NCBI RefSeq assembly: GCF_003367235.1
Contig: NZ_QRGP01000002.1
Coordinates: 573,501-637,500 of the forward strand
Direction: 5' to 3'
Source of the DNA: Sphingorhabdus pulchriflava
GTDB taxonomy: Bacteria; Pseudomonadota; Alphaproteobacteria; Sphingomonadales; Sphingomonadaceae
Length of the DNA stretch: 64,000 nt
Numbering within the stretch: the stretch's first letter is position 1; every line of letters starts with the position of its first letter. Both the position numbers and the translations under genes were made by a program. Under the pieces are notes generated by a model that was not told where the DNA came from, made no database searches, and saw nothing but the letters and a program-made list of their open reading frames with translations. This document shows positions 11,359 to 63,964 of this stretch, one piece after another.

Positions 11359-11795
11359 GCTGCAGGTTTCGCCATCATCTCTTCTAACTCCGCGACCACC
11401 TCGGCGCGCAGTGGCTTGGCCTCATTATCGGTACGGCAGACGATCACGCTGTCGCAGGTACCAATGCATTGACCTTTCTGGAACATTGCCTGCACTACAA
11501 CCCAGCTTGAATTACCGATGCGACCGATGCCTGAGCCGATGGTTACTGGCGCAGGAAAGTTACCCTCGCGCAGATAGTTGATTTCGACCGAGGCGACCAT
11601 CGTGCGTTCGTTTTCGGGGCGATCAGACCATGGCCGCGCTTTGCGGTGCAGCTGGACACGGGCATTCTCGAACAACGACGCGAAGGCGACATTGTTGAGG
11701 TGCCCGTTGATGTCCATGTCCTGAAAGCGTGTGTCGCTTTCGAGGATGATGGGGTAAGCGGCCAGGTTCAGCCGCCACCCTTCGGGTTTCGCCAT
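11355..11795 (-). CDS. Acyl-CoA thioesterase, 4HBT hotdog fold
   Basis: 146 residues. The segment TRFQDMDINGHLNNVAFASLFE-like near residues 20-41 matches the D-x-x-G-H-x-N-N motif of hotdog-fold thioesterases, with the Asp and Asn-rich loop at the active site. Its start shares one base with the stop of the upstream acyl-CoA dehydrogenase, so the two form an operon. It probably releases a free acid from an acyl-CoA produced or consumed by the dehydrogenase. It differs from the thioesterase at 9474, so the locus carries two hotdog enzymes on opposite strands. Confidence 0.85.
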   Translation of the reverse strand: MAKPEGWRLNLAAYPIILESDTRFQDMDINGHLNNVAFASLFENARVQLHRKARPWSDRPENERTMVASVEINYLREGNFPAPVTIGSGIGRIGNSSWVVVQAMFQKGQCIGTCDSVIVCRTDNEAKPLRAEVVAELEEMMAKPAA

Positions 11796-12949
11796 TAGAG
11801 CTTGCGTCCGATCAGTTCTTTCATGATCTCGCTGGTGCCACCAAAAATGCGGGTCACGCGTGCGCCGCGGAACTGCTTGGCGATTGGATATTCATTCATA
11901 AAGCCAGCACCGCCGTGCAACTGGAGGCACTTGTCGACGACTTCACCCTGCAGCTCGGTGTGCCACAGCTTAGCCGCCGAAGCTTCTTCCGGAGTCAGTT
12001 CCTTTTTCATGTGGCGGGCGAGCGCCCAGTCGATATGCGCCCAGCCGACTTGCAGCTTGGTCTTGAGGTCTGCCAGTACGAAACGGGTGTTCTGGAAATC
12101 GAGGATCGGTTTGCCAAATGCCTTGCGTTCGCGGACAAACTCGACCGTCTGGTCGAAACTGCGCTGCGCGCCGGTCTGCGCGCCGATCGCAATCGAAAGC
12201 CGTTCCTGCGGCAATTCGCTCATCAGATAGATGAAGCCCATGCCTTCCTGACCGAGGCAGTTGGTGATCGGAACGCGGACATCTTCGAAAAACAGTTCCG
12301 AAGTGTCGGCAGCGTCGAGGCCGACCTTATCGAGATTGCGGCCGCGTTTGAAACCTTCACGATCGGCTTCGACGAGAACGATCGATACGCCCTTATAGGC
12401 GGGGTTCGCATCCGGATCGGTCTTGCAGCATACGAGGATCAGGTCGGCATTCTGGCCATTGGTGATATAGGTCTTGGCACCATTGACGACATAATGATTA
12501 CCGTCTTTCTTCGCCGTGGTGCGCATACCCTGAAGGTCGGAACCCGTTCCGGGTTCGGTCATCGCGATGGCGGTGATCACTTCACCCGAAACCATCTTGG
12601 GAAGCCACTGCTTCTTCTGTTCTTCGGAGCCATATTGGATGATGTAATTTGCAACGATATCGGTTTGGAGCGAGAAACCGGTTGCGACATCGGTGTTATA
12701 ACCGAATTCTTCATTGATGATGGCGTTGTAGCCAAAATCGAGGCCGAGGCCGCCAAATTCTTCGGGGACGGTCGGGCAGAGTAGGCCCAGCTCACCTGCC
12801 TTGGGCCAGACTTCGCGCGGAACGAGGCCTTCGGCGTCCCACTTATCCGCATTGGGCTCGATCTCTTTTGCGACAAACTGGCGGACCGTCGAGCGGAAGG
12901 CTTCATGGTCTTCGTTATAGGCGGTGCGGTGCAATGCATCGAGCGACAT
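11795..12949 (-). CDS. Acyl-CoA dehydrogenase
   Basis: 384 residues with the full three-domain acyl-CoA dehydrogenase layout. The FAD/substrate signature AMTEPGTGSDLQGM lies near 130-143, the middle beta-domain ends in LFFEDVRVP, and the C-terminal helical domain has the LHGGAGF and GGTSEIMKELIGR signatures. It oxidises an acyl-CoA to the 2-enoyl-CoA and passes electrons to ETF. The Y/I-E-G-T glutamate used by medium-chain enzymes is absent (IFGGTSEI), so the catalytic base may be elsewhere, as in isovaleryl- or long-chain enzymes. It heads an operon with a thioesterase; two inverted-repeat motifs lie upstream. Confidence 0.92.
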   Translation of the reverse strand: MSLDALHRTAYNEDHEAFRSTVRQFVAKEIEPNADKWDAEGLVPREVWPKAGELGLLCPTVPEEFGGLGLDFGYNAIINEEFGYNTDVATGFSLQTDIVANYIIQYGSEEQKKQWLPKMVSGEVITAIAMTEPGTGSDLQGMRTTAKKDGNHYVVNGAKTYITNGQNADLILVCCKTDPDANPAYKGVSIVLVEADREGFKRGRNLDKVGLDAADTSELFFEDVRVPITNCLGQEGMGFIYLMSELPQERLSIAIGAQTGAQRSFDQTVEFVRERKAFGKPILDFQNTRFVLADLKTKLQVGWAHIDWALARHMKKELTPEEASAAKLWHTELQGEVVDKCLQLHGGAGFMNEYPIAKQFRGARVTRIFGGTSEIMKELIGRKL

Positions 12950-12993: not shown

Positions 12994-13009
12994 TTTACGC
13001 AAGCGTCAA
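12994..13009. promoter_or_regulatory. Shared 16-bp motif TTTACGCAAGCGTCAA, copy 1
   Basis: Imperfect inverted repeat 45-60 bases upstream of the acyl-CoA dehydrogenase start at 12949. The identical 16 bases occur at 55160-55175, upstream of another leftward acyl-CoA dehydrogenase. Its form resembles MerR-type LiuR operators known for branched-chain acyl-CoA genes; on the minus strand it begins TTGACG, which could serve as a -35 box. Confidence 0.6.
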
Positions 13010-50897: not shown

Positions 50898-52022
50898 CTA
50901 CGCGTCCATCGCCTGCCATGTCGCCATGACCAGCGCGAATCCCCGGGCATCGCCTGTAGTGGTGCCCTCCATCCGGTTCATCACATAGGAGAATGTCGTC
51001 TGTGCATCCATGTCGACGATAGCGATCGATCCACCATAGCCACCCCAATAGCAGCTATTGGGATTGGGCAACGGTACCATGCCGCCTGGCAGGCCAAAAC
51101 CCATGCCGAACCGCACGGGGATGCCAAGGACAAGATCGGTGCCCTCAACCTGACATTCGAATGCGCGGCGACACCCGGCTTCTGACAGGAAGCGCTTGCC
51201 CTTGGCCATGCCGCCATTTGCAAGGATGGCATGGATTTCCGCTACTGAGCGTGCATTGCCCGTGCCGCCAGCTGCTGGAATTTCCGCCCCGCGCCATGCC
51301 CTTTTTGCGGTTTCACCGACATCGATGCCGGGATTGGTCGCCATATTCTTTTGCAGATCCGATGCCGCTTGCGCGGCAACGGCAATGGGAGGTGGTTGCA
51401 GTGTTGCGACCCTGCCGTCTTCTGATGCCGGAAGGCCGATATGGAAATCAGCGCCCAAGGGCTCGGCAATTTCCTCACGGAAAACAGTGCCGATGGTTTT
51501 ACCCGTTGCACGTCGCACAACTTCACCGACCAGATAGCCCTGGGTCAGCGCATGATAGCCCGGTGCAGTACCCGGTGCCCAAAACGGGGCTTGCTGTGCG
51601 AGCAAATCAACGCATTTGGACCAGTCATAGAGATCCTCACGTTGTAGCGGTTCCTTCCAACCGGAAAGCCCGGCGGAATGGCTCAGCAGTTGGGCAATGG
51701 TGACGTCGTCCTTGCCCTCGGCAGCAAATTCCGGCCAGAATTTTGCTACCCGGTCGTGGAGGTCGAAAACACCACGGTCGGCAAGCAGCAGCGCAGTGAG
51801 TGCTGCCATCGTCTTGGTCGTCGAATAGACGTTGACGATGGTATCGCGATCCCAACTGCTGGTCTTATCAGGGTTGGCATGCCCACCCCAGATATCGACC
51901 ACAGTTTCACCGTCGCGGGTTACGCAGAACGAAGCCCCGATATCGGCGCCACTTGCGAGGCTGGCCTCCATCACGGACTTTACGCCCGCAAATTTGCCCT
52001 CCGCAACGCCGTGGACGCTCAC
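50898..52022 (-). CDS. Serine hydrolase, beta-lactamase/EstB fold
   Basis: 374 residues from GTG 52022 (GTGA overlaps the SDR stop). The S-x-x-K tetrad is in VYSTTKTM (Ser near 68), with GYHALTQGYLVGEV supplying the Tyr and a late GGYGGSIAIVD. Likely a cytosolic esterase or lactonase. It ends the leftward operon of two acyl-CoA dehydrogenases and an SDR, so it probably opens an ester or lactone in the same pathway. The paralogs at 36081 and 62762 share SMTK in place of STTK. Confidence 0.86.
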   Translation of the reverse strand: MSVHGVAEGKFAGVKSVMEASLASGADIGASFCVTRDGETVVDIWGGHANPDKTSSWDRDTIVNVYSTTKTMAALTALLLADRGVFDLHDRVAKFWPEFAAEGKDDVTIAQLLSHSAGLSGWKEPLQREDLYDWSKCVDLLAQQAPFWAPGTAPGYHALTQGYLVGEVVRRATGKTIGTVFREEIAEPLGADFHIGLPASEDGRVATLQPPPIAVAAQAASDLQKNMATNPGIDVGETAKRAWRGAEIPAAGGTGNARSVAEIHAILANGGMAKGKRFLSEAGCRRAFECQVEGTDLVLGIPVRFGMGFGLPGGMVPLPNPNSCYWGGYGGSIAIVDMDAQTTFSYVMNRMEGTTTGDARGFALVMATWQAMDA

Positions 52023-52810
52023 GCGTCGATGCTCGGTGAACCGATATTGGCGTGCGCCACGCCGCCATCGACGGTGATAGTATCGCCAATAACATAGTTG
52101 CCGGCATCTGACGCAAGATAGATCGCCGCCGCCGCCATATCTTCGGCAACGCCGATGCGCTTGTTCGGGATGTTGCTGGCGACCGCTTCGCCATGGTCGC
52201 GCGCTGCCTTGTTCATATCAGAGGCAAAGGCACCCGGGGCGATCGCAGTGACATTGATCTGATCCTGAACCAACCGCGCAGCCATGCGTTTTGTAAGATA
52301 CAGGATCGCCGACTTGGATGCGTGATAGCTATAGGTTTCCCAGGGGTTGAGACGGATACCGTCGATTGAGCCGATATTGATAACCTTCGCCGGATGCGCC
52401 TTGGTCGCCGCAGCCTTCAGCAGCGGGTATAACGCCTGCGTCAGGAAGAAGGGGCCCTTGACATTGAGGTCCATGACCTTGTCCCAGCCCGCTTCAGGGA
52501 ATTCCTCGAACGGTGCGCCCCAGGCGGCTCCTGCGTTGTTGACCAGGATATCGAGTTTCGACTCGCGTTCGGCGAATGCAGCCGCCAACGCCTTGCAGCC
52601 CTCAACCGACGAGACATCCATTGGCAGCGGAATGCAGTTGGGGCCCAGTTCGGCTGCTGTTGCTTCACAGGCGTCCGCTTTGCGCGAGCTGATATAGACC
52701 TTGGCACCAGCGGCGATGAAGCCTTCGGCCATATGGCGGCCGAGATTCTTGGAACCACCGGTGACGAGCGCGACACGGCCTTCAAGGCTGAAAAGTTTCT
52801 GCAAGTCCAT
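52019..52810 (-). CDS. SDR family oxidoreductase
   Basis: About 263 residues from ATG 52810, two bases after the acyl-CoA dehydrogenase stop. Nucleotide motif TGGSKNLG (about 15-22), NNAGAAWG (about 90), active-site YSYHASKSA (Tyr-x-x-x-Lys), and a C-terminal IGDTITVDGG. The variant TGxxxxxG start is common in SDRs related to gluconate or 3-oxoacyl reductases. It is likely the alcohol or hydroxyacyl-CoA oxidation step in the leftward operon. Confidence 0.9.
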   Translation of the reverse strand: MDLQKLFSLEGRVALVTGGSKNLGRHMAEGFIAAGAKVYISSRKADACEATAAELGPNCIPLPMDVSSVEGCKALAAAFAERESKLDILVNNAGAAWGAPFEEFPEAGWDKVMDLNVKGPFFLTQALYPLLKAAATKAHPAKVINIGSIDGIRLNPWETYSYHASKSAILYLTKRMAARLVQDQINVTAIAPGAFASDMNKAARDHGEAVASNIPNKRIGVAEDMAAAAIYLASDAGNYVIGDTITVDGGVAHANIGSPSIDA

Positions 52811-52812
52811 GA

Positions 52813-53949
52813 TCAATATCCGTTCAACTGGGCCACGCGGTCGGCGTGGAAATAGATGTCGCCCATATATTCGGCGAGCGCGCGGTCGCGCTTCATATAG
52901 AGGCCGATGTCATATTCGTCGGTCATGCCGATGCCGCCATGCATCTGCACGCCTTCGCGGACAGAAAGGCTGCAGGCAAGACCTGCCTTGGCCTTGGCGA
53001 CCGAGGCGTAAAGCTCTGCACGCGGATCTGCCTCGTCGAGGAAGTTCTGCGCCTTGAGCACAGCGGAGCGCGCCATTTCCATTTCGCCATAAAGATGCGC
53101 GGCACGATGCTGCAGCGCCTGGAACTCGCCGATGACGCGGCCAAACTGCTTGCGCTGTTTGAGATAGTCAAAGGTCAGGTCCATCGCGCCGGTGCCAACG
53201 CCAACCATTTCGGCGGCGGAACCGGTGCGTCCGGCGTTGAGCATTTTGGACAAGACAGCCCAGCCGCCGTCGACATCGCCAATCACGGCGTCGGCGGTTA
53301 CTTCGACACCATCAAATGCGACACGAGCAGCCATTGCTGAGTCAACGGTGCGCGCGGCATCCATCGACAGGCCGGCTGCGTCTTTCTCAACCGCAAACAG
53401 CGTCAAGCCTGCCGTCTCGCCAATAGCACCTCCGGTACGGGCTGCAACAATCAGCATGTCGGCAGAGCTACCCTGCACGACAAACTGCTTTGCACCGCTC
53501 AGCTTGAAGCCATTGCCGCTGCGTTCGGCCTTGAGCGCGATCTTTTCCGGATGGTGCTTTTTGCCCTCTTCAAGTGCGATGCCGATCACCGTTTCACCAG
53601 CGAGAATGCCGGGGAACCAACGGTCGCGCATTGCCTTGTCGGCAGCCTTCAATGCTTCAACAGCAACCACCGAGGTTGAAAGGAAGGGCGAGGGCGAGAG
53701 GTTGCGTCCAATTTCTTCCAGCACGATGCCAGCTTCGACATGGCCCATGCCCAGCCCGCCATCGGCTTCGGGGATCAGGATGCCGGTGAAACCCATTTCG
53801 GAAAATTGCTTCCACAGATCGTGGCTGAAGCCATCCTTGCAATCCATGTCCCGATATTTGCGCAGATGCGCGACGGGCGCTTCGGTTTTCATGAAGTCGC
53901 GTGCGCTATCGCGCAGCATCGACTGGTCTTCATTATAGGTCATGGCCAT
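52813..53949 (-). CDS. Acyl-CoA dehydrogenase subunit lacking the catalytic glutamate
   Basis: 378 residues with the acyl-CoA dehydrogenase fold but without the E-G-T/S signature; the corresponding end reads MHGGIGMTDEYDIGLYMKRD. Mid-domain QFVVQGSSADMLIV is degenerate. The neighbouring gene at 53953 has an intact IEGGTSEV motif. A catalytic plus a non-catalytic acyl-CoA dehydrogenase side by side is the hallmark of heterotetrameric enzymes in steroid and isoprenoid side-chain degradation. Three bases separate the two genes, so one operon is likely. The call as non-catalytic partner is inference. Confidence 0.86.
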   Translation of the reverse strand: MAMTYNEDQSMLRDSARDFMKTEAPVAHLRKYRDMDCKDGFSHDLWKQFSEMGFTGILIPEADGGLGMGHVEAGIVLEEIGRNLSPSPFLSTSVVAVEALKAADKAMRDRWFPGILAGETVIGIALEEGKKHHPEKIALKAERSGNGFKLSGAKQFVVQGSSADMLIVAARTGGAIGETAGLTLFAVEKDAAGLSMDAARTVDSAMAARVAFDGVEVTADAVIGDVDGGWAVLSKMLNAGRTGSAAEMVGVGTGAMDLTFDYLKQRKQFGRVIGEFQALQHRAAHLYGEMEMARSAVLKAQNFLDEADPRAELYASVAKAKAGLACSLSVREGVQMHGGIGMTDEYDIGLYMKRDRALAEYMGDIYFHADRVAQLNGY

Positions 53950-53952
53950 TGG

Positions 53953-55113
53953 TCAGGCTCCCGGCATGTCGAGAATGCGTTTTGCGACGACGTTGAGCAT
54001 CACTTCGCTCGTGCCGCCTTCGATCGAATTGGCTTTGGTGCGCAGCCAGTCGCGTGCACGCTTGCCGCCATTCGAGCGTTCGCTTTCCCATTCCAGATAG
54101 TCTGAACCACCAGCCGCCATCACCAGTTCGTGGCGCTTCTTGTTCAGTTCCGTCCCGATATATTTCATCAGGTTCGAATAGGCTGGATGCGCGGTGCCGG
54201 TTTTCCATTCGTCCATGAAGCGTTCGCTGTGCGCGCGGAAGGCAAGGCTTTCGACGTCAAACATCGCAAGCTGCGCGCGCAGTATCGGTTCATCACCCAG
54301 CGCATCCTTGAAGCCGCCGCCGAGCGAGGCGGTGCCGCCATCGCCGCCCATGCCCGAAATCATTTCGCGCTCATGGCCGAGCAGATATTTGGCGACATCC
54401 CAACCGCGGTTGAGCTCGCCGACAATCTGATGCTTGGGCACCACGACATTGTCGAAGAAGGTTTCGCAGAAGGGCGAGTTGCCCGAAATCAGCTTGATCG
54501 GCTTGGTGGTAACGCCCGGTGTCGTCATATCGAACAACAGGAAGCTGATGCCCTGATATTTGTTTTCCTTATCCGTGCGGACAAGGCAGAAAATCCAGTC
54601 GGCCTTGTCGGCATAGCTCGTCCAGATTTTCTGGCCGTTGACGACCCAATGGTCGCCCTTGTCTTCGCCAAAGGTTTGCAGCGAAACGAGGTCCGAACCT
54701 GATCCCGGTTCTGAATAGCCCTGACACCAGCGGATTTCGCCGCGCGCGATCTGCGGCAGGTAATGGCGCTTCTGCTCTTCGGTGCCGAATTTCAGCAGTG
54801 CGGGGCCAAGCATCCAGATGCCAAAGCTGTTGAGCGGCGAACGTGCGCCGGCGCGTGCCATTTCCTGACGGAAAATTTTGGTTTCAGCAGGCGACAGTCC
54901 TGCGCCGCCATAGTCCTTTGGCCAATCGGGCACGGTAAGGCCTGCCGCTGCGCAGCGCTCCATCCATTGTTTTTGCGCTTCGCTTTGGAAAACGAAGTTA
55001 CGACCGCCCCAGCAGGTGTCGTCGTCGCTTTTGATCGGGGTTTTCATTTCGGGCGGGCAGTTTGCCTCTATCCACGCCCTGATTTCCGTCCGGAATGCCT
55101 CCAGTTCGCTCAT
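53953..55113 (-). CDS. Acyl-CoA dehydrogenase, catalytic subunit
   Basis: 386 residues from ATG 55113 (MSELEAFRTE). The substrate-side motif QGYSEPGSGSDLVSL (about 130-145), beta-domain INGQKIWTSY-like stretch, and IEGGTSEVMLNVVAKRIL near the end, with the catalytic Glu in IEGGT. The reading frame runs far upstream of 55113, but that part is intergenic. First gene of the leftward operon, immediately before the non-catalytic partner. A shared 16-bp motif lies at 55160-55175. Confidence 0.9.
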   Translation of the reverse strand: MSELEAFRTEIRAWIEANCPPEMKTPIKSDDDTCWGGRNFVFQSEAQKQWMERCAAAGLTVPDWPKDYGGAGLSPAETKIFRQEMARAGARSPLNSFGIWMLGPALLKFGTEEQKRHYLPQIARGEIRWCQGYSEPGSGSDLVSLQTFGEDKGDHWVVNGQKIWTSYADKADWIFCLVRTDKENKYQGISFLLFDMTTPGVTTKPIKLISGNSPFCETFFDNVVVPKHQIVGELNRGWDVAKYLLGHEREMISGMGGDGGTASLGGGFKDALGDEPILRAQLAMFDVESLAFRAHSERFMDEWKTGTAHPAYSNLMKYIGTELNKKRHELVMAAGGSDYLEWESERSNGGKRARDWLRTKANSIEGGTSEVMLNVVAKRILDMPGA

Positions 55114-55159
55114 CGGGATTCTCCTAAAAAGTGCCGAATCACTATGTCTCTTTGTGCGC

Positions 55160-55175
55160 TTTACGCAAGCGTCAA
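55160..55175. promoter_or_regulatory. Shared 16-bp motif TTTACGCAAGCGTCAA, copy 2
   Basis: Identical over 16 bases to 12994-13009 and about 47 bases before the start at 55113. See that entry. LiuR-like regulator site is the working guess. Confidence 0.6.
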
Positions 55176-55276: not shown

Positions 55277-56122
55277 ATGAGATTCGCTGGGAAGACGGCT
55301 GTCGTCACCGGGGCTGCATCGGGCATTGGCAAGGCCACCTGCCTTCGATTGGCCGAAGAAGGTGCGACCGTAATCGCTGCCGACATTGATGAAGAGGGCG
55401 GCAGCGAACTTGCCGCCACTTCAAACGGCAAGATTTTCTTCAAACGCACCGACGTGTGCAACGTCGCCGAGATCAAGGCACTGATGGATTTCGCCGCCGA
55501 AAAGACTGGCGGCATCGACATTGTGTTCAACAATGCAGGCGCAGCCGGTGACCGGGCACCTATTGACGAGATTGAACCCGAAGGCTGGGACCGGACGATG
55601 GACCTGCTGTTGCGCTCGGTCGCTATGGGCATCCGTTATGCCGTGCCGCATATGAAGGGCCGCAAGGGCGCTTCGATTGTGAACACCGCGAGCATTGCCG
55701 CGCTTGGTGCGGGATATTCGCCTTCGGCTTATGCGGTGGCAAAGGTTGGCGTGCTGCATCTTTCAAAAATGGCGGCAGCAGAGCTTGCCAAATTTGACAT
55801 TCGGGTCAACGCGATCTGCCCCGGCTTCATCAAAACGAACATTTTTGCATCGGCACTCGAAGTCCCGGCTGATCAGCGCGATGCGGCCAATGCCGTCATT
55901 TATGAAGTGGCCAATGCGGCGCAACCGGTGAAAGGCGGCGGCAATCCAGAGGACATTGCCTCGATGGTTGCCTATCTCGCCAGTTCTGAAGCGCGCTTCA
56001 TCACGGGCACGCATATGGTGGTCGACGGTGGGATTACAATCGGCCCGCGCCACAGCTGGGATGAAAATGCCCCGGCGATGTTCGATTCGGTTGAGAGCTT
56101 CGCCGGCGCGGCTCAGGAATGA
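55277..56122 (+). CDS. SDR family oxidoreductase
   Basis: 281 residues. Cofactor motif TGAASGIGKA (about 12-21), FNNAGAAGD (about 85), the active-site Tyr-Lys in SAYAVAKVG, and TGTHMVVDGG at the C-terminus. It probably oxidises a secondary alcohol or 3-hydroxyacyl intermediate with NAD. Head of the rightward set, followed by the MelB-like transporter with a four-base overlap (56119-56122). A half-site like the shared operator (TTTAATCGGC, near 55228) is upstream but weak. Confidence 0.9.
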   Translation: MRFAGKTAVVTGAASGIGKATCLRLAEEGATVIAADIDEEGGSELAATSNGKIFFKRTDVCNVAEIKALMDFAAEKTGGIDIVFNNAGAAGDRAPIDEIEPEGWDRTMDLLLRSVAMGIRYAVPHMKGRKGASIVNTASIAALGAGYSPSAYAVAKVGVLHLSKMAAAELAKFDIRVNAICPGFIKTNIFASALEVPADQRDAANAVIYEVANAAQPVKGGGNPEDIASMVAYLASSEARFITGTHMVVDGGITIGPRHSWDENAPAMFDSVESFAGAAQE

Positions 56123-57564
56123 CGATCACCTCGGACGGGCGCGTTCCAACGCGGATCAAATTCTTTCACGGCTTTGGCAGCATGGCCTATGGCGTGAAGG
56201 AGAACGGCTTTTCGACGTTCCTTTTGCTGTTTTACAATCAGGTCATCGGGATGGATGCCCGGCTGGTTGGCGCAGCATTGGCGATTGCGATGGTCGTTGA
56301 CGCTTTTGCCGATCCAATCATCGGGCATATGAGTGATCGCACCTATTCGCGATGGGGGCGGCGTCTGCCCTGGCTGTATCTGGCCGCGGTTCCGCTAGCG
56401 GCGTCGTGGATGCTGCTCTGGCACCCACCGGGGCTGGAGGGATGGCAGGCCTTTGGCTATCTCGTCGTCACAGCGATTCTCGTCCGAACGCTGGTATCGG
56501 CTTGCGAGGTGCCTTCAGTCGCGATCCTGCCAGAACTGACGCAGGATTATGATGAGCGAACCAGCCTGATGCGGTTGCGCTATCTGTTCGCATGGGCGGG
56601 CGGATTGCTGATGCTGTTCCTTGCCTATGGCGTGTTTCTGGTTTCGGACAAGGAAGGCGAAGTCGGGCAGCTGCTGGCTGAAGGCTATTGGATGTACGGT
56701 ATCACCGGTGCCTGCCTGATGGCGTTCACCGTCCTTCTGTCTGCCATCGGGCAGCATAAGCGGCTCGCCCATTTGCCTGCGACACAACCTGACCGCACGA
56801 CGGTGCGTGAAGCGATACGCGAGATCTGGCACTCGGTTTCGCATCCGACCTATCTGGTACTGATTTCCGCCGTCGCCTTTGCTGCAGTCAGCACGCAGGT
56901 CACCTATGTCCTGTCCAACTATCTCTACATATTTGTATGGCGTTTTCCCGAACGCTGGTTCCAGGCATATCCCTGGTTGCTGTTCGGCAGCGTCATCATC
57001 GCCTTTTTCCTCGTCACCTATTTCAACAAAAAATGGGGCAAAAAGGACTCAGCCTTCCGTTTCATTTTCATCAATGCTGGATTCTGGATCACCCCGTTCC
57101 TGCTGTTTCTTGGCGGATTTTGGCCGCAGACGGGCAGTAATCTCTCCACCGCGATGGTGTTCGCTTTCTTCTTCATCGCCAATTGCTCCGGCGTGATCAT
57201 CCAGATTTCGGTCGCTTCAATGATTGCGGATGTGGTCGAGGTCACCGAGGAGCGTACAGGACGACGTTCGGAAGGGCTGCTCTATGCCGGCAATTTGTTC
57301 GTGCAGAAATGTGCGACTGGTGCAGGCATATTGATCGGCGGTTTCATCATATCGATGGCCGGGCTTCCGGAGAAGGCCAACCCGGCCAATGTGCCTGCCC
57401 CTGTTATCGACAGTCTGGTAATTGCGTATATCAGTACAATCGTGTTGTTGGGGCTCGGCACCATATGGCGGATCCGGAAATTCCCGATCACCCGCGCCGA
57501 TCATGAGGAACGTGTTCGGCGTCTCGCCGAGGGTGAAAAAACAGTTGAAGCAGGGGCCGGATAG
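56119..57564 (+). CDS. MFS transporter, GPH/MelB-like
   Basis: 481 residues with twelve helices. The N-terminus (FGSMAYGVKENGFSTFLLLF) and DPIIGHMSDRTYSRWGRRLPW (the A-type loop with D and R) are typical of the MelB/GPH sodium-symporter group. Many sphingomonad members lie inside catabolic clusters and take up aromatic, terpenoid or steroid-like compounds. It is co-translated with the upstream SDR, which supports a role in uptake of the island's substrate. A weak GGGCC-GGATA-GGCCC hairpin overlaps its stop. Confidence 0.88.
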   Translation: MTITSDGRVPTRIKFFHGFGSMAYGVKENGFSTFLLLFYNQVIGMDARLVGAALAIAMVVDAFADPIIGHMSDRTYSRWGRRLPWLYLAAVPLAASWMLLWHPPGLEGWQAFGYLVVTAILVRTLVSACEVPSVAILPELTQDYDERTSLMRLRYLFAWAGGLLMLFLAYGVFLVSDKEGEVGQLLAEGYWMYGITGACLMAFTVLLSAIGQHKRLAHLPATQPDRTTVREAIREIWHSVSHPTYLVLISAVAFAAVSTQVTYVLSNYLYIFVWRFPERWFQAYPWLLFGSVIIAFFLVTYFNKKWGKKDSAFRFIFINAGFWITPFLLFLGGFWPQTGSNLSTAMVFAFFFIANCSGVIIQISVASMIADVVEVTEERTGRRSEGLLYAGNLFVQKCATGAGILIGGFIISMAGLPEKANPANVPAPVIDSLVIAYISTIVLLGLGTIWRIRKFPITRADHEERVRRLAEGEKTVEAGAG

Positions 57565-57579
57565 GCCCAAGGAAATCAA

Positions 57580-57597
57580 GTTAACCGGACGATTAAA
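57580..57597. promoter_or_regulatory. Shared inverted-repeat operator, copy C
   Basis: GTTAACCGGACGATTAAA, arms spaced as in copies A and B (13017 and 37233), 16 bases before the ACAD10/11-like start at 57613. Possible repressor site of the rightward operon. Confidence 0.55.
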
Positions 57598-57612
57598 AAG
57601 AGGACGACTCGC

Positions 57613-58902
57613 ATGGACTTTACCTTCACCGAACGCGAAACCTATTGGCGCGACCGCATCAAGAGCCACATCGACACCTACCTCCGTCCGCGTGTCGGTG
57701 ACTATAAAAAGGAAATGGAAAGCGGCGACACCCGCTGGAAAGTCCTGCAAGTCCTTGAAGAGGAAAAGGCTCGGGCCAAGGCCGCTGGCCTTTGGAACCT
57801 GTTCATGCCACCACAGGGTGCCAATCCGCACCTCGACACCTCTGTCGAATTCGAAGGTCCGCAACTGACCAACGTCGAATATGCACTGTGTGCTGAAGAA
57901 ATGGGTCGGCTCGGATTTTCCTCCGAAGTGTTCAACTGCTCGGCCCCTGACACCGGCAATATGGAAGTCTTCCACCGCTATGGCACGGCCGAACAGAAGA
58001 AGAAGTGGCTTGTGCCGCTGATGAATGGCGAAATCCGTTCGGCCTTCCTGATGACCGAACCTGCCGTGGCTTCGTCCGATGCCACCAACATTGAAACCCG
58101 CATGGTTCGCGATGGCGACGAATATGTCATCAACGGTACCAAATGGTGGTCGTCGGGTCTGGGCGATCCGCGCTGCAAGGTTGCGATCGTGATGGGCAAG
58201 ACGGACACTGGCGCGCAAAAGCACCAGCAACAGTCGCAGATTATTGTGCCGATGGACGCTCCCGGCGTGAACATCCTGCGCCACTTGCCGGTCTTCGGTT
58301 ATGATGATGCCCCGCATGGCCATATGGAAGTTGAACTGAAGGACGTTCGCGTCCCGGTTGAAAACGTTATCCTCGGCGAAGGCCGCGGCTTTGAAATTGC
58401 GCAGGGCCGGCTTGGACCTGGCCGTATCCACCACTGCATGCGGACGATTGGCGTCGCTGAAGAAGCGCTGGAAAAGATGTGCCGCCGCCTCACCAGTCGC
58501 GTCGCTTTCGGCAAGACGATTGCCGAACATAGCGTCTGGCATGAACGTATCGCGCGCGCCCGTATCGACATCGAAATGACTCGTCTGCTCTGCCTGAAGG
58601 CAGCACAGATGATGGACACCGTCGGCAACAAGGCCGCGGCCAATGAAATCGCGATGATCAAGGTTCAGGCACCGAATATGGCACTGAAAATTATCGACGA
58701 CGCCATTCAGGCGCATGGCGGTGGCGGCGTGTCCGAAGATTTCGGTCTGGCTTCGGCCTATGCACATCAGCGTACCCTGCGTCTCGCCGATGGCCCCGAT
58801 GAAGTGCACAGCCGTTCGATCGCTCGGATGGAACTGGGCAAATATGGCGGCGTTCGTGGCGGCGTTGAACTGACAAGCGGCAATCTGGCGGTGACACGCT
58901 GA
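57613..58902 (+). CDS. ACAD10/11-like acyl-CoA dehydrogenase
   Basis: 429 residues. The N-terminal start ([16 protein letters not shown]) and the [13 protein letters not shown] segment (about 61-73) and the C-terminal [20 protein letters not shown] are the hallmarks of the ACAD10/11 branch, where the catalytic Glu of other dehydrogenases is replaced (ADGPDEVH). In these enzymes the dehydrogenase part works with a kinase on a 4-phosphoacyl-CoA. Here the kinase is separate, two genes downstream (59987). The next start shares one base with its stop (TGATG). Confidence 0.9.
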
Positions 58903-59990
58903 TGAAAGCTGCAGTCCTCATTGAACCGGGCAAACCGCTCGAAATCGAAACCCTGCAAATCTCGAATCCGGGTCCGCATGAGGTGCTGATCCGCAATGCA
59001 GCTTGCGGGCTGTGCCATTCGGATCTGCATTTCATCGAAGGTACCTATCCGCATCCGTTGCCCGCTGTGCCGGGCCACGAAGCGGCTGGTATTGTCGAGG
59101 CAGTCGGATCCGAAGTGCGCACTGTGAAGGTCGGCGATGCCGTGATCACCTGCCTGTCAGCTTTCTGCGGGCATTGTGAGTTCTGCGTCACCGGGCGGAT
59201 GTCGCTGTGTCTAGGAGCCGATACCCGTCGTTCGCCGGAAGATCCATCGCGGCTCTCGCGCCCAGATGGCTCGCCGGTGAATCAGATGCTCAACCTTTCG
59301 GCTTTCGCCGAAATGATGCTGATCCACGAACATGCGTGCACCCGTATCGACCCCGAAATGCCGCTCGATCGGGCGGCGGTGATCGGTTGTGCGGTGACCA
59401 CGGGTGCGGGGACAATCTTCAACGCCTGCAAAGTGACACCGGGCGAGACTGTCGCGGTTGTCGGCTGCGGCGGGGTTGGTCTGGCGACGATCAATGCAGC
59501 GAAGATTGCGGGTGCTGGGCGCATCATCGCCTGCGATCCGATCCCCGAAAAGCGTGAACTGGCGAAGAAGCTGGGCGCGACCGATGTGGTTGACGCTTTG
59601 GCCGATGATGCTGCAGCACAGGTAATCGAGCTGACCAAGGGCGGTGTCGATCATGCGATTGAAGCTGTGGGACGTCCGGCCTCGGGCGATCTGGCGGTCA
59701 AGTCGCTGCGCCGTGGCGGAACAGCAACGATCCTTGGCATGATGCCGCTGACCCACTCGGTAGGCCTGTCTGCTATGGACCTGCTGTCGGGCAAGAAGCT
59801 GCAAGGTGCGATCATGGGTGGCAACCGCTTCCCGGTAGATATGCCGCGTCTGGTCGATTTCTATATGCGCGGGCTGCTTGATCTCGACAGCATCATCGCT
59901 GAGCGAATCCCGCTTGAGCAGATCAACGAAGGCTTTGAGAAGATGAAGAAGGGCGATAGCGCGCGCAGCGTTATCGTATTCGATCAATGA
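58902..59990 (+). CDS. Zinc-dependent alcohol dehydrogenase
   Basis: 362 residues of the MDR family. Catalytic zinc ligands are in GLCHSDLHF (Cys near 38) and PGHEAAG (His near 62); the structural zinc four-Cys loop is FCGHCEFCVTGRMSLC. Nucleotide motif VVGCGGVGL (about 185-193), then IACDPIPEKRE with the NAD-favouring aspartate. Class III-like general alcohol oxidation is likely, with the pathway intermediate as substrate. It is overlapped at both ends by its neighbours. Confidence 0.92.
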   Translation: MKAAVLIEPGKPLEIETLQISNPGPHEVLIRNAACGLCHSDLHFIEGTYPHPLPAVPGHEAAGIVEAVGSEVRTVKVGDAVITCLSAFCGHCEFCVTGRMSLCLGADTRRSPEDPSRLSRPDGSPVNQMLNLSAFAEMMLIHEHACTRIDPEMPLDRAAVIGCAVTTGAGTIFNACKVTPGETVAVVGCGGVGLATINAAKIAGAGRIIACDPIPEKRELAKKLGATDVVDALADDAAAQVIELTKGGVDHAIEAVGRPASGDLAVKSLRRGGTATILGMMPLTHSVGLSAMDLLSGKKLQGAIMGGNRFPVDMPRLVDFYMRGLLDLDSIIAERIPLEQINEGFEKMKKGDSARSVIVFDQ

Positions 59991-61069
59991 GCGATAATGC
60001 AGCCATGAATGCTGATGAGGCTTTTGTCGGTACGGTCGAACCCGAGGGTGCAGACAAACTCGACGAAGGCCGCCTTACCGAGTGGATGCAGGCAAATGTG
60101 GAGGGCTTCAAAGGCCCTCTGCACCTGACCAAGTTCAAAGGCGGGCAATCGAATCCGACTTACAAGATCGAAGCGGAGTCGGGCAATTATGTGCTCCGGC
60201 GCAAACCCTTTGGGCCGTTGCTCCCTTCGGCGCATGCCGTGGACCGCGAGTATAAGGTGCAGGCGGGGATGTATAAGACCGGTTTCCCTGTGGCGCGCCA
60301 ATATGGTCTGTGCACCGACGACAGTGTGATCGGCAGCTGGTTTTATGTCATGGGCATGGTCGATGGCCGCACCATCTGGAACGGTGCCATGCCGGGTAGC
60401 ACTCCGGAGGAACGCCGTGCGGTCTATTTCGAGATGTTCGATGTCCTCGCCAAATTGCACAACACCGATATCGAGGCTGCGGGCCTTTCCGATTTCGGCA
60501 AGCCGGGCAATTATTTCGGTCGTCAGGTTGATCGCTGGACGAAGCAGTATCGCCTGTCGGAAACCGAAACCATGCCTGGCATGGAAAAGCTGATCGAATG
60601 GCTGCCCGCGACCTTGCCCGAACAGACCCGCACCAGCGTGGTCCATGGCGATTTCCGCATCGATAATGCGATTTTCGATCGCAACAGCCCGAAATGCCTC
60701 GCCGTTCTCGATTGGGAATTGTCGACCATCGGCGATCCGCTGGCAGATTTCTCCTATGTCGCAATGGCATGGGTGACCGAAAATGGCGGCCGTTCAGGCG
60801 TCAAGGATCTGGACCGCAAGGAACTCGGCATCCCGGAACTGGAAGAAGTCGTCGAGCGCTATTGCGCGGCAACTGGTCGCGACAGCATTCCCGATCTCAA
60901 CTGGTACCTTGCCTATAACTTCTTCCGCCTTGCGGGGATCATGCAGGGCATCAAGAAGCGTGTGATCGATGGCACCGCCAGCTCGGCGCATGCCAAGGCC
61001 ATGTCTGATCGCGTGACCCCGCTAGTCGATCGGGCTTGGGAATTTGCGGTAAAGGCGGGAGCGGCATAA
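59987..61069 (+). CDS. ACAD10/11-like kinase, aminoglycoside-phosphotransferase fold
   Basis: 360 residues. The APH fold has FKGGQSNPTY (nucleotide loop), YVLRRKPFG (Lys for ATP), HGDFRIDNAIFD (Asp catalytic, Asn metal) and LDWELSTIGDP (Asp metal). The segment LLPSAHAVDREYKV is typical of the kinase domain of ACAD10/11 and of LvaA, which phosphorylates the 4-hydroxy group of 4-hydroxyacyl-CoAs. It follows the ADH with a four-base overlap (ATGA). In one operon with an ACAD10/11-like dehydrogenase and SDRs, this recreates the split form of the pathway. Confidence 0.88.
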   Translation: MSDNAAMNADEAFVGTVEPEGADKLDEGRLTEWMQANVEGFKGPLHLTKFKGGQSNPTYKIEAESGNYVLRRKPFGPLLPSAHAVDREYKVQAGMYKTGFPVARQYGLCTDDSVIGSWFYVMGMVDGRTIWNGAMPGSTPEERRAVYFEMFDVLAKLHNTDIEAAGLSDFGKPGNYFGRQVDRWTKQYRLSETETMPGMEKLIEWLPATLPEQTRTSVVHGDFRIDNAIFDRNSPKCLAVLDWELSTIGDPLADFSYVAMAWVTENGGRSGVKDLDRKELGIPELEEVVERYCAATGRDSIPDLNWYLAYNFFRLAGIMQGIKKRVIDGTASSAHAKAMSDRVTPLVDRAWEFAVKAGAA

Positions 61070-61180: not shown

Positions 61181-61954
61181 ATGTCCCTTTTCGACATGAG
61201 CGGGCAGGTTGCCCTGATAACCGGTTCGTCGCGCGGCATTGGCAAGGCGATTGCCGAGGAAATGGCAGAGCATGGCGCAAAGGTGGTCATTTCCAGCCGC
61301 AAGCAGGATGCCTGTGATGCAGTCGCGGCCGAAATCAACGCGAAATATGGCGCTGGCACTGCAATCGCGGTCGCAGCCAACATTTCCTCGAAAGAAGATT
61401 TGCAGCATTTGGTCGATGAAACGCGCAAGGCATTCGGCAAGATAACCGCCTTGGTCTGCAATGCGGCATCCAACCCCTATTACGGTCCAAGCGCCGGGAT
61501 CAGCGACGATCAATTCCGCAAGATCATGGACAACAACATCCTGTCCAACCACTGGCTGATTCATATGGTCGCACCCGAAATGTGCGAACGTGGGCAGGGG
61601 TCGGTCACCATCGTTTCGTCGGTCGGCGGTTTGAAGGCTTCGACCGTCATCGGTGCCTATTGCATTTCCAAGGCTGCCGACATGCAGATGGCGCGCAATC
61701 TGGCCGATGAATTCGGGCCAAAGGGTGTGCGCGTCAACTGCATCGCACCGGGCCTGATCAAGACCGACTTTGCCCGTGCGCTTTGGGAGAATCCCGATAC
61801 GTTGGAAATTTCAACCCGTCGCTCGTCGCTGCGCCGCATTGGCGAGCCGTATGAAATCGCCGGGGCAGCGGTATTCCTTGCCAGCAAGGCAGGCGGCTTT
61901 ACCACAGGACAAACGATCGTCATCGACGGCGGCAATACAATTTCAGGAGGATGA
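61181..61954 (+). CDS. SDR family oxidoreductase
   Basis: 257 residues. Cofactor motif TGSSRGIGKA (about 13-22), CNAASNPYYG (about 92), active-site GAYCISKAA (Tyr-x-x-x-Lys), and TTGQTIVIDGG. A good ribosome-binding site (GGAGGATGGAGA) precedes ATG. SDRs of this type (LvaD-like) act in the lva pathway as 3- or 4-hydroxyacyl-CoA oxidoreductases. Stop overlaps the next start. Confidence 0.9.
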   Translation: MSLFDMSGQVALITGSSRGIGKAIAEEMAEHGAKVVISSRKQDACDAVAAEINAKYGAGTAIAVAANISSKEDLQHLVDETRKAFGKITALVCNAASNPYYGPSAGISDDQFRKIMDNNILSNHWLIHMVAPEMCERGQGSVTIVSSVGGLKASTVIGAYCISKAADMQMARNLADEFGPKGVRVNCIAPGLIKTDFARALWENPDTLEISTRRSSLRRIGEPYEIAGAAVFLASKAGGFTTGQTIVIDGGNTISGG

Positions 61955-62760
61955 GCATGGGCGCACTCGCAGGCAAAGTTGCAATCATAACAGGCGCGGG
62001 TTCGGGCATCGGCCGTGCATCTGCCAGGCGGTTCGCTGCTGAAGGCGCGAAGCTCGTCATAGGTGACAAGACCGAAGCGGTTTTCGAAACGGCAAAGATG
62101 GTAGAGGAAGCTGGCGGAACCGTCACCGCGCTGCAGATCGATGCCGGTGTTGAGGCCGATGTGGCGAAACTCGTCGAGACCGCGAAGGCCAATTATGGCG
62201 GCGTCGATGTTGCCTTCGCCAATGCCGGTATCATCGGCGATATGGGCGGAATCTTCGAAATTGATCCTGCCACCATGGCCGAAACCTTCCGCGTCAACGT
62301 CATTGGCCCCGCCTTGATGGTGAAACATGCGGGCAAGGCGATGGTCGATCAGGGACGTGGCGGGTCCATTGTGCTGACCGCGAGCGTCGCTGGCCTCAAT
62401 TCGGGCGCTGGCCCGCTAACTTATTCGGCATCGAAGGCAGGCGTCATCAACCTCGCCAAGACAGCGGCGCAGCAGCTGACGACCTCGGGCGTGCGCGTGA
62501 ATGCGATCTGCCCGGGCCTCACCGAAACCGGCATGACCAAGCCGACATTTGATTATGCTCGTTCAAAGGATGTGATGCACAAGGTGGGGCAGTTGAACCC
62601 GCTGAAGCGCGCGGCCCAGCCGGAGGAGCTGGCCAATGTCGCATTGTTCCTCGCCTCTGATCAGGCAAGCTATGTCAACGGGCAGGCGATTGCGGTCGAC
62701 GGTGGTTTGACCAGCTCGCATCCGGTTACGCGGCAACTTCTCGGACAGACGGCACACTGA
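61951..62760 (+). CDS. SDR family oxidoreductase
   Basis: 269 residues. [10 protein letters not shown] (about 15-24), FANAGIIGD, the active site TYSASKAG, and [13 protein letters not shown] near the end. It follows the previous SDR with a four-base overlap. The two SDRs differ in sequence, so they probably work on different intermediates. ATG 61951 or 61957 (MGALAGK) are both possible. Confidence 0.9.
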
Positions 62761-62761
62761 C

Positions 62762-63964
62762 ATGAGCGACGACAACGCAGCACTCGGACTTGGCTTCCTG
62801 CCTGATCGGCTCGCCCGCATCGGCGCGCACATTCAGGAGAAATATCTCGACAGCGGCAAACTGCCCTTTGGCGCGCTGCTCATCGGGCGCGGCGACGACG
62901 TCGCGCACACATGGGCGTCGGGCGTCGATCATGATGCCATTTTCCGCATCGCCAGCATGACCAAGCCGATCACCTCGATCGTTTTCATGCAACTGGTCGA
63001 GCAGGGCAAGGTCGCGTTGAGCGAGCCGGTCGCCAAATATATTCCGGAATTCGCCGATCTGGGCGTGTTCATGGCTGGCGGCGGCAATGTGCCCTTCACA
63101 AGCCGCCCGCCCACGACACGGCTCAATATCATCGACGTGCTGCGCCACACCACCGGCTTCACTTACAGCTTTCAGGAACGCACGCCGGTCGACGCCGCCT
63201 ATCGCAAGACTGAGCTTGAGCACTGGATGAAGAATGACAGCCAGAGCTTCATCAACCACCTGTCGCAGATTCCGCTCGAATTCGATCCGGGCACTTGCTG
63301 GAATTACTCGGTTTCAACTGACGTATTGGGCGTATTGGTAGAGCGCATTTCGGGCCAGTCGCTGGGCGATTATTTCCGCGAGCATATTTTCGAACCGCTC
63401 GGCATGAAGGATACCGGCTTCAAGGTGGCCGCCGACCAAGCACATCGCATTCCGCCCTGCTATGCCTTCCATCCCAAGGACAAGATGGTGCAGACTGACA
63501 AGGCAGGGGCCGACAGCCTGTGGGCGCAAGGTTGGAAGTTTGAATCGGGTGGCGGCGGCCTTGCCTCGACCGTCCACGATTATCATCGTTTCTGCCGGAT
63601 GTTGCTCAATGGCGGCGCACTTGATGGTGTCCAGATTGTCAGCCCTAAGACATTGGAGCTGATGACTGCCAACCATCTGCCTGGCGGCGGCGATTTGACC
63701 CAGCATTCGAAATCGCTGTTCAGCGAAGCGGAAAATGCAGGCATCGGTTTCGGGCTTGGCTTCGCCTGCAATATCGATCCTGCAGCCACGATGCTCGCGG
63801 GATCGAAGGGTGAATTCTACTGGGGCGGCATGTATTCGACCGCCTTCCTCGTCGACCCGGTCGAGGATCTGATCATGGTTTTCATGACCCAACTCGCGCC
63901 CTCATCGACCTATCCGATCCGGCGTGAAATTCGCACGATGATGTATGCGGCTTTGGCGGCTTAG
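62762..63964 (+). CDS. Serine hydrolase, beta-lactamase/EstB fold
   Basis: 400 residues. S-x-x-K in RIASMTKPI (Ser near 63), Tyr in [11 protein letters not shown], and the third motif [12 protein letters not shown]. It shares the SMTK and STxHDY forms with the hydrolase at 36081 and is the closest of the three to it. Position at the end of the rightward operon suggests a hydrolase acting on an ester or lactone of the pathway; no signal peptide. It starts two bases after the SDR stop. Confidence 0.87.

What the first reader, a model, noticed from the sequence alone, without database searches (positions are those of the whole stretch)
57613..61069. Split ACAD10/11-type kinase and dehydrogenase: a phosphorylating 4-hydroxyacyl-CoA route
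One operon holds a dehydrogenase with ACAD10/11 signatures ([19 protein letters not shown] in place of the usual Glu motif) and, two genes on, an APH-fold kinase with the LLPSAHAVDREY segment and intact catalytic Asp and metal residues. In the P. putida lva operon and in mammalian ACAD10/11 these two activities convert a 4-hydroxyacyl-CoA by phosphorylation. Here the pair is joined by a zinc ADH, two SDRs, a MelB-type transporter and a lactonase-like hydrolase, which suggests catabolism of a lactone or 4-hydroxy side chain. The substrate is inference.
Basis: partly seen in the sequence, partly recalled or inferred. Interest (0 to 1): 0.78.

Follow-up and report, generated by a model that had tools for sequence, protein, structure and literature searches.

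The report
Bacterial kinase–dehydrogenase pair for 4-hydroxy acids
A sphingomonad-type bacterium carries, as two separate genes in one conserved catabolic cluster, the same two enzyme parts that mammals fuse in ACAD10/11 to break down 4-hydroxy fatty acids through a phosphate intermediate; the chemistry is known, but this cluster and its natural food source are not.

Summary
The dehydrogenase (57613-58902) and kinase (59987-61069) match mammalian ACAD11 far better than ordinary acyl-CoA dehydrogenases or antibiotic kinases, and carry the tested catalytic and phosphate-pocket residues of ACAD11; one modelled CoA contact (R86) could not be mapped. In 299 sampled genomes of the phylum, 87 have both genes, 2 only the dehydrogenase, 0 only the kinase; the two exceptions have a diverged kinase beside a related dehydrogenase. 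So the core reading, phosphorylation of a 4-hydroxyacyl-CoA and then flavin-dependent phosphate elimination to a 2-enoyl-CoA, is well supported by inference.

The pair sits in a catabolic island kept in 35 of 40 chosen family loci. It differs from the P. putida lva operon: no acyl-CoA ligase, no LvaB-sized gap, a Zn alcohol dehydrogenase between the two genes, a GPH transporter, and a divergent two-gene dehydrogenase resembling heteromeric (recalled: steroid-type) enzymes. A FadB-like gene follows just past the window. Levulinate is unlikely; a bulky or branched 4-hydroxy acid or lactone is plausible but unproven.

The genome holds two more split pairs and a fourth dehydrogenase with the same pocket signature, which suggests that phosphate-eliminating dehydrogenases are a wider group than ACAD10/11 and LvaC.

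The parts
57613..58902 (+). ACAD10/11-type acyl-CoA dehydrogenase (proposed 4-phosphoacyl-CoA eliminase), 429 aa
   Evidence: PDB best hits ACAD11 449/448 bits; R266, R271, H274, R277, D393 and H237 align with ACAD11 R626, R631, H634, R637, D753 and H597
59987..61069 (+). APH-fold kinase of ACAD10/11 type (proposed 4-hydroxyacyl-CoA kinase), 360 aa
   Evidence: PF01636 167 bits; 3dxp 388 bits, ACAD11 248 bits; D222, N227 and R179 align with ACAD11 D220, N225 and R176; trees
58902..59990 (+). Zn-dependent alcohol dehydrogenase between the two
   Evidence: PF00107/PF08240; best NCBIfam TIGR03989 318 bits, below its cut-off 440; in 36 of 40 family loci
56119..57564 (+). GPH/MelB-type transporter (MFS_2)
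   Evidence: PF13347 358 bits; in 33 of 40 family loci
55277..56122 (+). SDR oxidoreductase (sdr1), first gene of the plus-strand operon
   Evidence: in 19 of 40 family loci
61181..61954 (+). SDR oxidoreductase (sdr2)
   Evidence: best PDB DHRS4 178 bits; in 17 of 40 family loci; 74-75% identical a few kb from the pair in three Bradyrhizobium loci
61951..62760 (+). SDR oxidoreductase (sdr3)
   Evidence: in 18 of 40 family loci
62762..63964 (+). PF00144 serine hydrolase, esterase-like (blaP)
   Evidence: best PDB 7pp3 'Esterase' 368 bits; in 13 of 40 family loci
53953..55140 (-). acdC, predicted catalytic subunit of a heteromeric acyl-CoA dehydrogenase (start codon uncertain)
   Evidence: best PDB 4x28_A 153 bits, then 6wy8_B 150; in 36 of 40 family loci, on the opposite strand to the ACAD in 35 of the 35 that have both
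52813..53949 (-). acdD, predicted partner subunit without a Glu at either usual base position
   Evidence: best PDB 4kto 138.8 bits (isovaleryl-CoA dehydrogenase), second 6wy8_A 137.4; motif rows; in 35 of 40 family loci
52019..52816 (-). SDR oxidoreductase (sdrM)
   Evidence: in 34 of 40 family loci
50898..52022 (-). PF00144 serine hydrolase (blaM); hardly conserved with the island in the fetched stretches
   Evidence: in 1 of 40 family loci (many stretches end near this position)
55160..55175 (.). palindrome-like candidate operator TTTACGCAAGCGTCAA between the divergent operons
   Evidence: TTNACGNNNNCGTNAA exact in 9 of 33 island promoters (the window's included), within one mismatch in 16 of 33; letter-shuffled means 0 and 0.1, maxima 0 and 2 (pattern chosen after seeing these promoters); narrower form 4 times in the genome, 0 in the backward control

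Best explanation
The two genes encode the two halves of an ACAD10/11-type route. A 4-hydroxyacyl-CoA is phosphorylated on its 4-OH by the kinase (base D222). The dehydrogenase then uses FAD and the base D393 to remove an alpha proton, eliminates the phosphate held by R266/H274/R277 and returns the hydride, giving a 2-enoyl-CoA with no net oxidation. The FadB-like enzyme encoded just past the window then hydrates and oxidises it. The neighbouring SDRs and Zn-ADH probably make the 4-hydroxy compound from a 4-oxo, diol or related form, and the esterase and transporter bring the substrate in. Shown here: family, residues, gene linkage and co-occurrence. Inferred: the reaction, from the published ACAD10/11 and Lva enzymes; the roles of the neighbours; and a substrate that is bulkier or more branched than levulinate.
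For: Sequence scores. Residue map to those published for ACAD11 in PMC12440821 (sections 7 and 10, and part 1 of 2 of section 6, read; map). In the host genome, 4 of the 24 distinct ACADs examined carry the Arg..Arg..His..Arg plus Asp signature, and the three APH genes near an ACAD are near three of these four; the other six APH matches lie more than 5 kb from any ACAD match. Family: 37 of 40 kinase loci have a signature ACAD in the same 20-kb stretch. Phylum: 87 genomes with both, 2 ACAD only, 0 kinase only, 210 neither, against 62/4/25/208 for the control gene acdC with the kinase. FadB-like gene downstream. B. pseudomallei orthologues replace each half of ACAD10 in vitro (PMC11342911, passages).
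Against: No biochemistry on these proteins. No acyl-CoA ligase among the 13 island genes and no LvaB-sized gap, although lvaB is needed in P. putida (PMC6692424 passages). ACAD11 R86 (modelled CoA contact) fell on Tyr89 in my map. Away from this family the genes are often unlinked: kinase found in 11 of 20 chosen 15-kb ACAD stretches, and within 6 kb of 61 of the 124 ACAD matches entered. 3 of 40 family kinase loci have no signature ACAD nearby. The genomes in the co-occurrence count are related, so its Fisher P overstates the case; each search scored only the first 5-6 candidates a genome.
Confidence: 0.83

Rival explanations
1. The island is a levulinate / 4-hydroxyvalerate (lva) operon in another arrangement.
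For: Same two key enzymes; SDRs that could act like LvaD.
Against: The window island lacks ligase and LvaB and has a two-gene ACAD, Zn-ADH and GPH transporter that are not among the lva genes named in the passages I read. The genome's second split pair (C2:453-456 kb), with kinase, SDR, ACAD, SDR and an AMP-forming ligase in one row, fits lva better.
Confidence: 0.08
2. The pair handles linear mid-chain hydroxy fatty acids or gamma-lactones, whose beta-oxidation stalls at 4-hydroxyacyl-CoA.
For: ACAD10/11 do this in mammals (PMC12440821). The candidate operator recurs just upstream of another acyl-CoA dehydrogenase and of an SDR gene, and between the end of a PHA synthase gene and the next gene, an alpha/beta hydrolase. 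Six relatives carry an SGL-type gene (lactonase family) in the fetched stretch (Pfam run on one copy).
Against: The conserved acdC/acdD pair resembles heteromeric ACADs. No SGL gene among the window's island genes.
Confidence: 0.35
3. The pair handles a bulky alicyclic or polycyclic (steroid- or terpenoid-like) 4-hydroxyacyl-CoA or its lactone.
For: acdC best matches 4x28_A and then 6wy8_B; acdD's second-best match is 6wy8_A, the partner chain. The pair stands opposite the ACAD in 35 of 35 loci that have both. That these PDB enzymes act on steroids is recalled.
Against: acdD's best match is an isovaleryl-CoA dehydrogenase, by one bit; all these matches are distant (about 140-150 bits). No ring-opening enzyme or P450 among the 13 island genes.
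Confidence: 0.35
4. An ordinary acyl-CoA dehydrogenase beside an unrelated antibiotic- or choline-type kinase.
For: Database names such as 'aminoglycoside phosphotransferase'.
Against: Scores, residues, trees and co-occurrence.
Confidence: 0.02

Closest known systems
Mammalian ACAD10/ACAD11
   Same: Both halves homologous to ACAD11; catalytic Asp in each half; R626/R631/H634/R637 equivalents present
   Different: Two separate genes with a Zn-ADH between them; no fusion
P. putida KT2440 lva operon (LvaA/LvaC)
   Same: Split kinase and ACAD with an SDR; LvaC shares the catalytic Asp and pocket residues with ACAD10/11 (PMC12440821)
   Different: No LvaB, no LvaE-type ligase in the island; extra two-gene ACAD, Zn-ADH, GPH transporter and FadB-like gene. 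Direct comparison with LvaA/LvaC was not possible
B. pseudomallei LvaA/LvaC orthologues
   Same: Split bacterial pair shown to stand in for each half of ACAD10 (PMC11342911 passages)
   Different: Not compared in sequence here
3dxp and 4hr3 (both 'putative acyl-CoA dehydrogenase')
   Same: Closest bacterial solved chains of kinase and dehydrogenase: 388 and 433 bits
   Different: Named only as putative; function not looked up
Two-chain ACADs 4x28 and 6wy8/6wy9
   Same: acdC and acdD match different chains of 6wy8
   Different: Distant; heteromer formation is predicted, not shown

Membership tests
ACAD10/11-LvaC dehydrogenase | Best match to ACAD11 rather than to ordinary ACADs | tested here: met
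   449/448 bits against at most 137 for ordinary ACADs
ACAD10/11-LvaC dehydrogenase | Catalytic Asp (ACAD11 D753) in place of Glu | tested here: met
   D393
ACAD10/11-LvaC dehydrogenase | Phosphate pocket R626, H634, R637 | tested here: met
   R266, H274, R277
ACAD10/11-LvaC dehydrogenase | FAD-dependent phosphate elimination from 4-phosphoacyl-CoA | not testable with these tools
   needs an enzyme assay
ACAD10/11-LvaA kinase | APH fold with catalytic Asp and its Asn (D220, N225) | tested here: met
   PF01636; D222, N227
ACAD10/11-LvaA kinase | CoA-contact Arg residues R86 and R176 | tested here: inconclusive
   R176 maps to R179; position 86 mapped to Tyr89, though an Arg (R87) lies two residues before it beside Glu88
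ACAD10/11-LvaA kinase | Groups with ACAD11 kinase, apart from other APH proteins | tested here: met
   28 rows against two other APH of the genome, 97/93. Weaker points: within the 28 the 22-row group holding the window and ACAD11 kinases has 91/88, under the tool's mark, with five other APH rows, the fork was open; no antibiotic or choline kinase included
lva operon | LvaB, 12-kDa partner of LvaA | tested here: not met
   gaps between plus-strand genes are at most 111 bp up to blaP and 132 bp before the FadB-like gene; one published lva-type cluster also lacks it
lva operon | Acyl-CoA ligase (LvaE) in the operon | tested here: not met
   none among the 13 island genes
lva operon | Growth on levulinate | not testable with these tools
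   needs a culture

The most novel reading that the evidence does not exclude
Kinase-coupled, phosphate-eliminating dehydrogenases are a broad bacterial group with several uncharacterised classes, not only ACAD10/11 and LvaC. One genome carries at least three split pairs, and this island turns the chemistry on a bulky, perhaps polycyclic or terpenoid, 4-hydroxyacyl-CoA or lactone. In support, a class with ARLTHCMR and DGA-x-E-V/I-H keeps the four pocket residues and the Asp and has a kinase next door in 9 of 12 loci, of two unlike kinase kinds.
Probability: 0.35. Interest if true: 0.72.

Novelty: new variant of a known kind. Interest (0 to 1): 0.5.

Why it matters
It extends a recently solved mammalian pathway to a conserved bacterial cluster in which each half is a separate gene, so each step can be deleted and assayed alone. 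The four-residue signature plus an APH neighbour gives a simple rule for finding other kinase-dependent dehydroxylations that annotation now calls 'aminoglycoside phosphotransferase' and 'acyl-CoA dehydrogenase'.

Tried and rejected
Kinase/ACAD fusions: five kinase matches, most with unusually long open frames, were fetched. Four have a long N-terminal extension with no ACAD match and no Pfam domain other than APH and one sub-threshold match to a kinase-like family, so probably read-through; in the fifth the kinase ORF is of ordinary length. Third pair as a fixed unit: rejected, since a kinase lies in the 1.5-kb flanks of this ACAD type in only 4 of 22 loci, one of them weak, some loci cut short. 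A first count of linked kinases used a gene filter that dropped real genes and was replaced. My Asp pattern missed 4 of the 20 phylum ACADs there and one; aligned, all five have the Asp. Looser operator pattern: 11 sites against 7 in the backward control, so only the narrower form (4 against 0) is used. An early reading that the operator precedes the PHA synthase gene was wrong: it lies at that gene's end, before an alpha/beta hydrolase gene. Steroid literature: the words kinase and phosphotransferase do not occur in the estradiol paper's main text (PMC7793797). The name LiuR for the MerR-type gene near one site is not claimed; the passages of PMC5343134 that I saw gave no motif. L012 and L113 are one gene and were counted once among 24 ACADs; one row there (L111) aligned poorly and may not be an ACAD.
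Full report
OBSERVATION. The two genes are at the stated coordinates. The dehydrogenase (57613-58902) matches ACAD11 at 449 and 448 bits and 4hr3 at 433; the next ACAD is at 137 bits. The kinase (59987-61069) matches 3dxp at 388 bits, mouse ACAD11 at 248 and 9o56 at 183 (deposited as 'Aminoglycoside phosphotransferase'); the next chains are at 30 bits, and capreomycin and viomycin kinases at 19-20. The quoted motifs are present.

RESIDUES. I copied the printed alignments into a script and mapped the residues that PMC12440821 reports as important in ACAD11 (section 7, section 10 and part 1 of 2 of section 6 read). R626, R631, H634, R637, D753 and H597 fall on R266, R271, H274, R277, D393 and H237; kinase D220, N225 and R176 fall on D222, N227 and R179. 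The modelled CoA contact R86 fell on Tyr89 and is therefore not confirmed.

KINASE KINSHIP. In a first tree of 33 rows the fork joining the ACAD11-type kinases stayed open, with long-branched APH proteins of the genome in and around it. Without the three longest of these, the 28 kinases of this type (window, its orthologues, pairs 2 and 3, ACAD11, 3dxp, 9o56) split from the two remaining APH proteins with support 97/93. Within them the window, ACAD11 and 3dxp fall in a group of 22 (91/88, under the tool's mark), and pairs 2 and 3 with 9o56 in a group of 6 (97/86). No choline or antibiotic kinase was included.

SPECIFICITY WITHIN THE GENOME. Of 24 distinct ACADs aligned (the 22 matches plus acdC and acdD, which that search did not list, so others may be missing too), four carry the full signature: the window ACAD; pair 2 at C2:453.5 kb; pair 3 at C1:769 kb; and a fourth at C1:277.9 kb. 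The genome has nine PF01636 matches. Three lie within about 2 kb of ACADs, namely the first three signature ACADs; the other six lie more than 5 kb from any ACAD match. Pair 2 is accompanied by two SDRs and an AMP-forming ligase, a more lva-like make-up than the window island.

ISLAND. The plus-strand row runs SDR, GPH transporter, ACAD, Zn-ADH, kinase, SDR, SDR, PF00144 esterase and, just outside the window, a FadB-like enoyl-CoA hydratase/3-hydroxyacyl-CoA dehydrogenase at 64097-66133. The divergent row holds acdC, acdD, an SDR and another PF00144 hydrolase. Of 298 family genomes searched, 242 have a kinase match at E 1e-40. I chose 40 of those loci by hand, 20 from the closest matches and 20 from lower down the listing, and fetched 20 kb of each. 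Of the 40, 37 have the ACAD, 36 the Zn-ADH, 36 acdC, 35 acdD, 34 sdrM, 33 the transporter, but only 19, 17, 18, 13 and 15 have sdr1, sdr2, sdr3, blaP and fadB; 35 keep acdC+acdD+ACAD+ADH+kinase. The choice favours near relatives. The host itself is unnamed; I infer a sphingomonad from these neighbours.

CO-OCCURRENCE. In 299 genomes of the phylum, 89 have the ACAD (E 1e-60) and 87 the kinase (E 1e-30); all 87 are among the 89. The two exceptions carry a related ACAD class with the signature RLxxARLTHCMR and the catalytic Asp, each beside a diverged APH gene. As a control, acdC and the kinase give 62 both, 4 acdC only, 25 kinase only, 208 neither. Shared ancestry means the Fisher P overstates the case, and each search scored only the first 5-6 candidates a genome. 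Linkage is weaker than co-occurrence: of 112 kinase matches, 61 have an ACAD (E 1e-100) within 6 kb, in 55 of 87 genomes; of 20 ACAD stretches chosen across families, 11 hold a kinase, and all 20 have the pocket residues and the Asp.

OTHER CLASSES. Of 12 loci of the ARLTHCMR class (the query and 11 at 64-73% identity), 9 have a kinase directly beside the ACAD, three of ACAD11-kinase type and six of a diverged type with H-R/C/N-D in place of HGD. The HMM used included two of those kinases. One ACAD class paired with two unlike kinases argues for real functional coupling. Against a simple rule: pair-3-type ACADs have a kinase in the flanks in only 4 of 22 loci, and the own fourth ACAD has no APH match near it.

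TWO-GENE ACAD. acdC best matches 4x28_A and then 6wy8_B; acdD matches 6wy8_A at 137 bits, just under 4kto. acdC has a Glu in its GHER motif, and acdD lacks Glu at both usual base positions; that GHER is the base position of isovaleryl-CoA-type enzymes, and that 4x28 and 6wy8 act on steroids, is recalled. This is the main hint that the substrate is bulky or branched.

REGULATION. TTTACGCAAGCGTCAA at 55160-55175 lies between the divergent operons. The pattern, chosen after looking at these promoters, occurs exactly in 9 of 33 and within one mismatch in 16 of 33, against shuffled means of 0 and 0.1. Its narrower form occurs four times in the genome and not at all in the backward control: at the island; just upstream of another ACAD at window 12994; about 100 bp upstream of an SDR gene; and between the end of a PHA synthase gene and an alpha/beta hydrolase gene. 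A looser match lies just upstream of a MerR-type gene that is followed by an ACAD. The looser pattern itself is near noise (11 against 7). Co-regulation with acyl-CoA catabolism is thus likely but unproven.

LITERATURE. Seen: PMC12440821 (outline, sections 7 and 10, section 6 part 1); PMC11342911, PMC6692424, PMC9628823, PMC7793797 and PMC5343134 (passages only). Rand et al. 2017 was not held and is known only through these. Ten full-text searches listed no paper that, from its title or abstract, describes this island; the lists were capped and the library lacks most subscription journals.

VERDICT. The chemistry is a known kind; the split pair is a new, clearly qualified member; the island is a new variant of a 4-hydroxyacyl-CoA catabolic locus whose substrate is open.

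Noticed in passing
G000 C1:769102-771426 (L004, L011, L087): Third split pair: ACAD 42% identical to the window's, motif RLGGGRVHHAMR with ADGPTEVH, directly beside an APH kinase; this ACAD type is in 21 of 149 family genomes (E 1e-100) but has a kinase in the flanks in only 4 of 22 loci.
   Followed up: partly
G000 C2:453527-456531 (L003, L010, L086): Second split pair with two SDRs and an AMP-forming ligase, more lva-like than the window island.
   Followed up: partly
G000 C1:277.4-279.3 kb (L113): Fourth ACAD with the full pocket signature (RLSPARLSHCMR, YDGPTEVH); no APH match lies near it.
   Followed up: partly
L283-L294: ACAD class with ARLTHCMR, a kinase beside it in 9 of 12 loci, of two unlike kinase types.
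   Followed up: partly
L091 10001-11239 (plasmid pISP1, Sphingomonas sp. MM-1): An ACAD10/11-like gene without a kinase beside it sits between linX and gorA in the IS6100-flanked hexachlorocyclohexane region.
   Followed up: no
window 12994-13009: A second copy of the island's candidate operator lies just upstream of an acyl-CoA dehydrogenase (11795-12949, minus strand).
   Followed up: partly
L047, L049, L050, L051, L057, L065: Six relatives carry an SMP-30/SGL (lactonase-family) gene in the fetched stretch; the Pfam match was run on the L065 copy only.
   Followed up: partly
window 57217-58809 (-): A 530-aa open frame runs antisense through the ACAD; it looks like a by-product of codon bias.
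   Followed up: no
L173 4125-4886 and L219 13548-14246: A gene whose product has ITNDDG near its start (SurE-like, recalled) and one that looks like a histidine phosphatase (recalled) lie next to kinase/SDR genes of the same kind in other bacteria; a histidine phosphatase is also in the P. citronellolis lva-type cluster.
   Followed up: no
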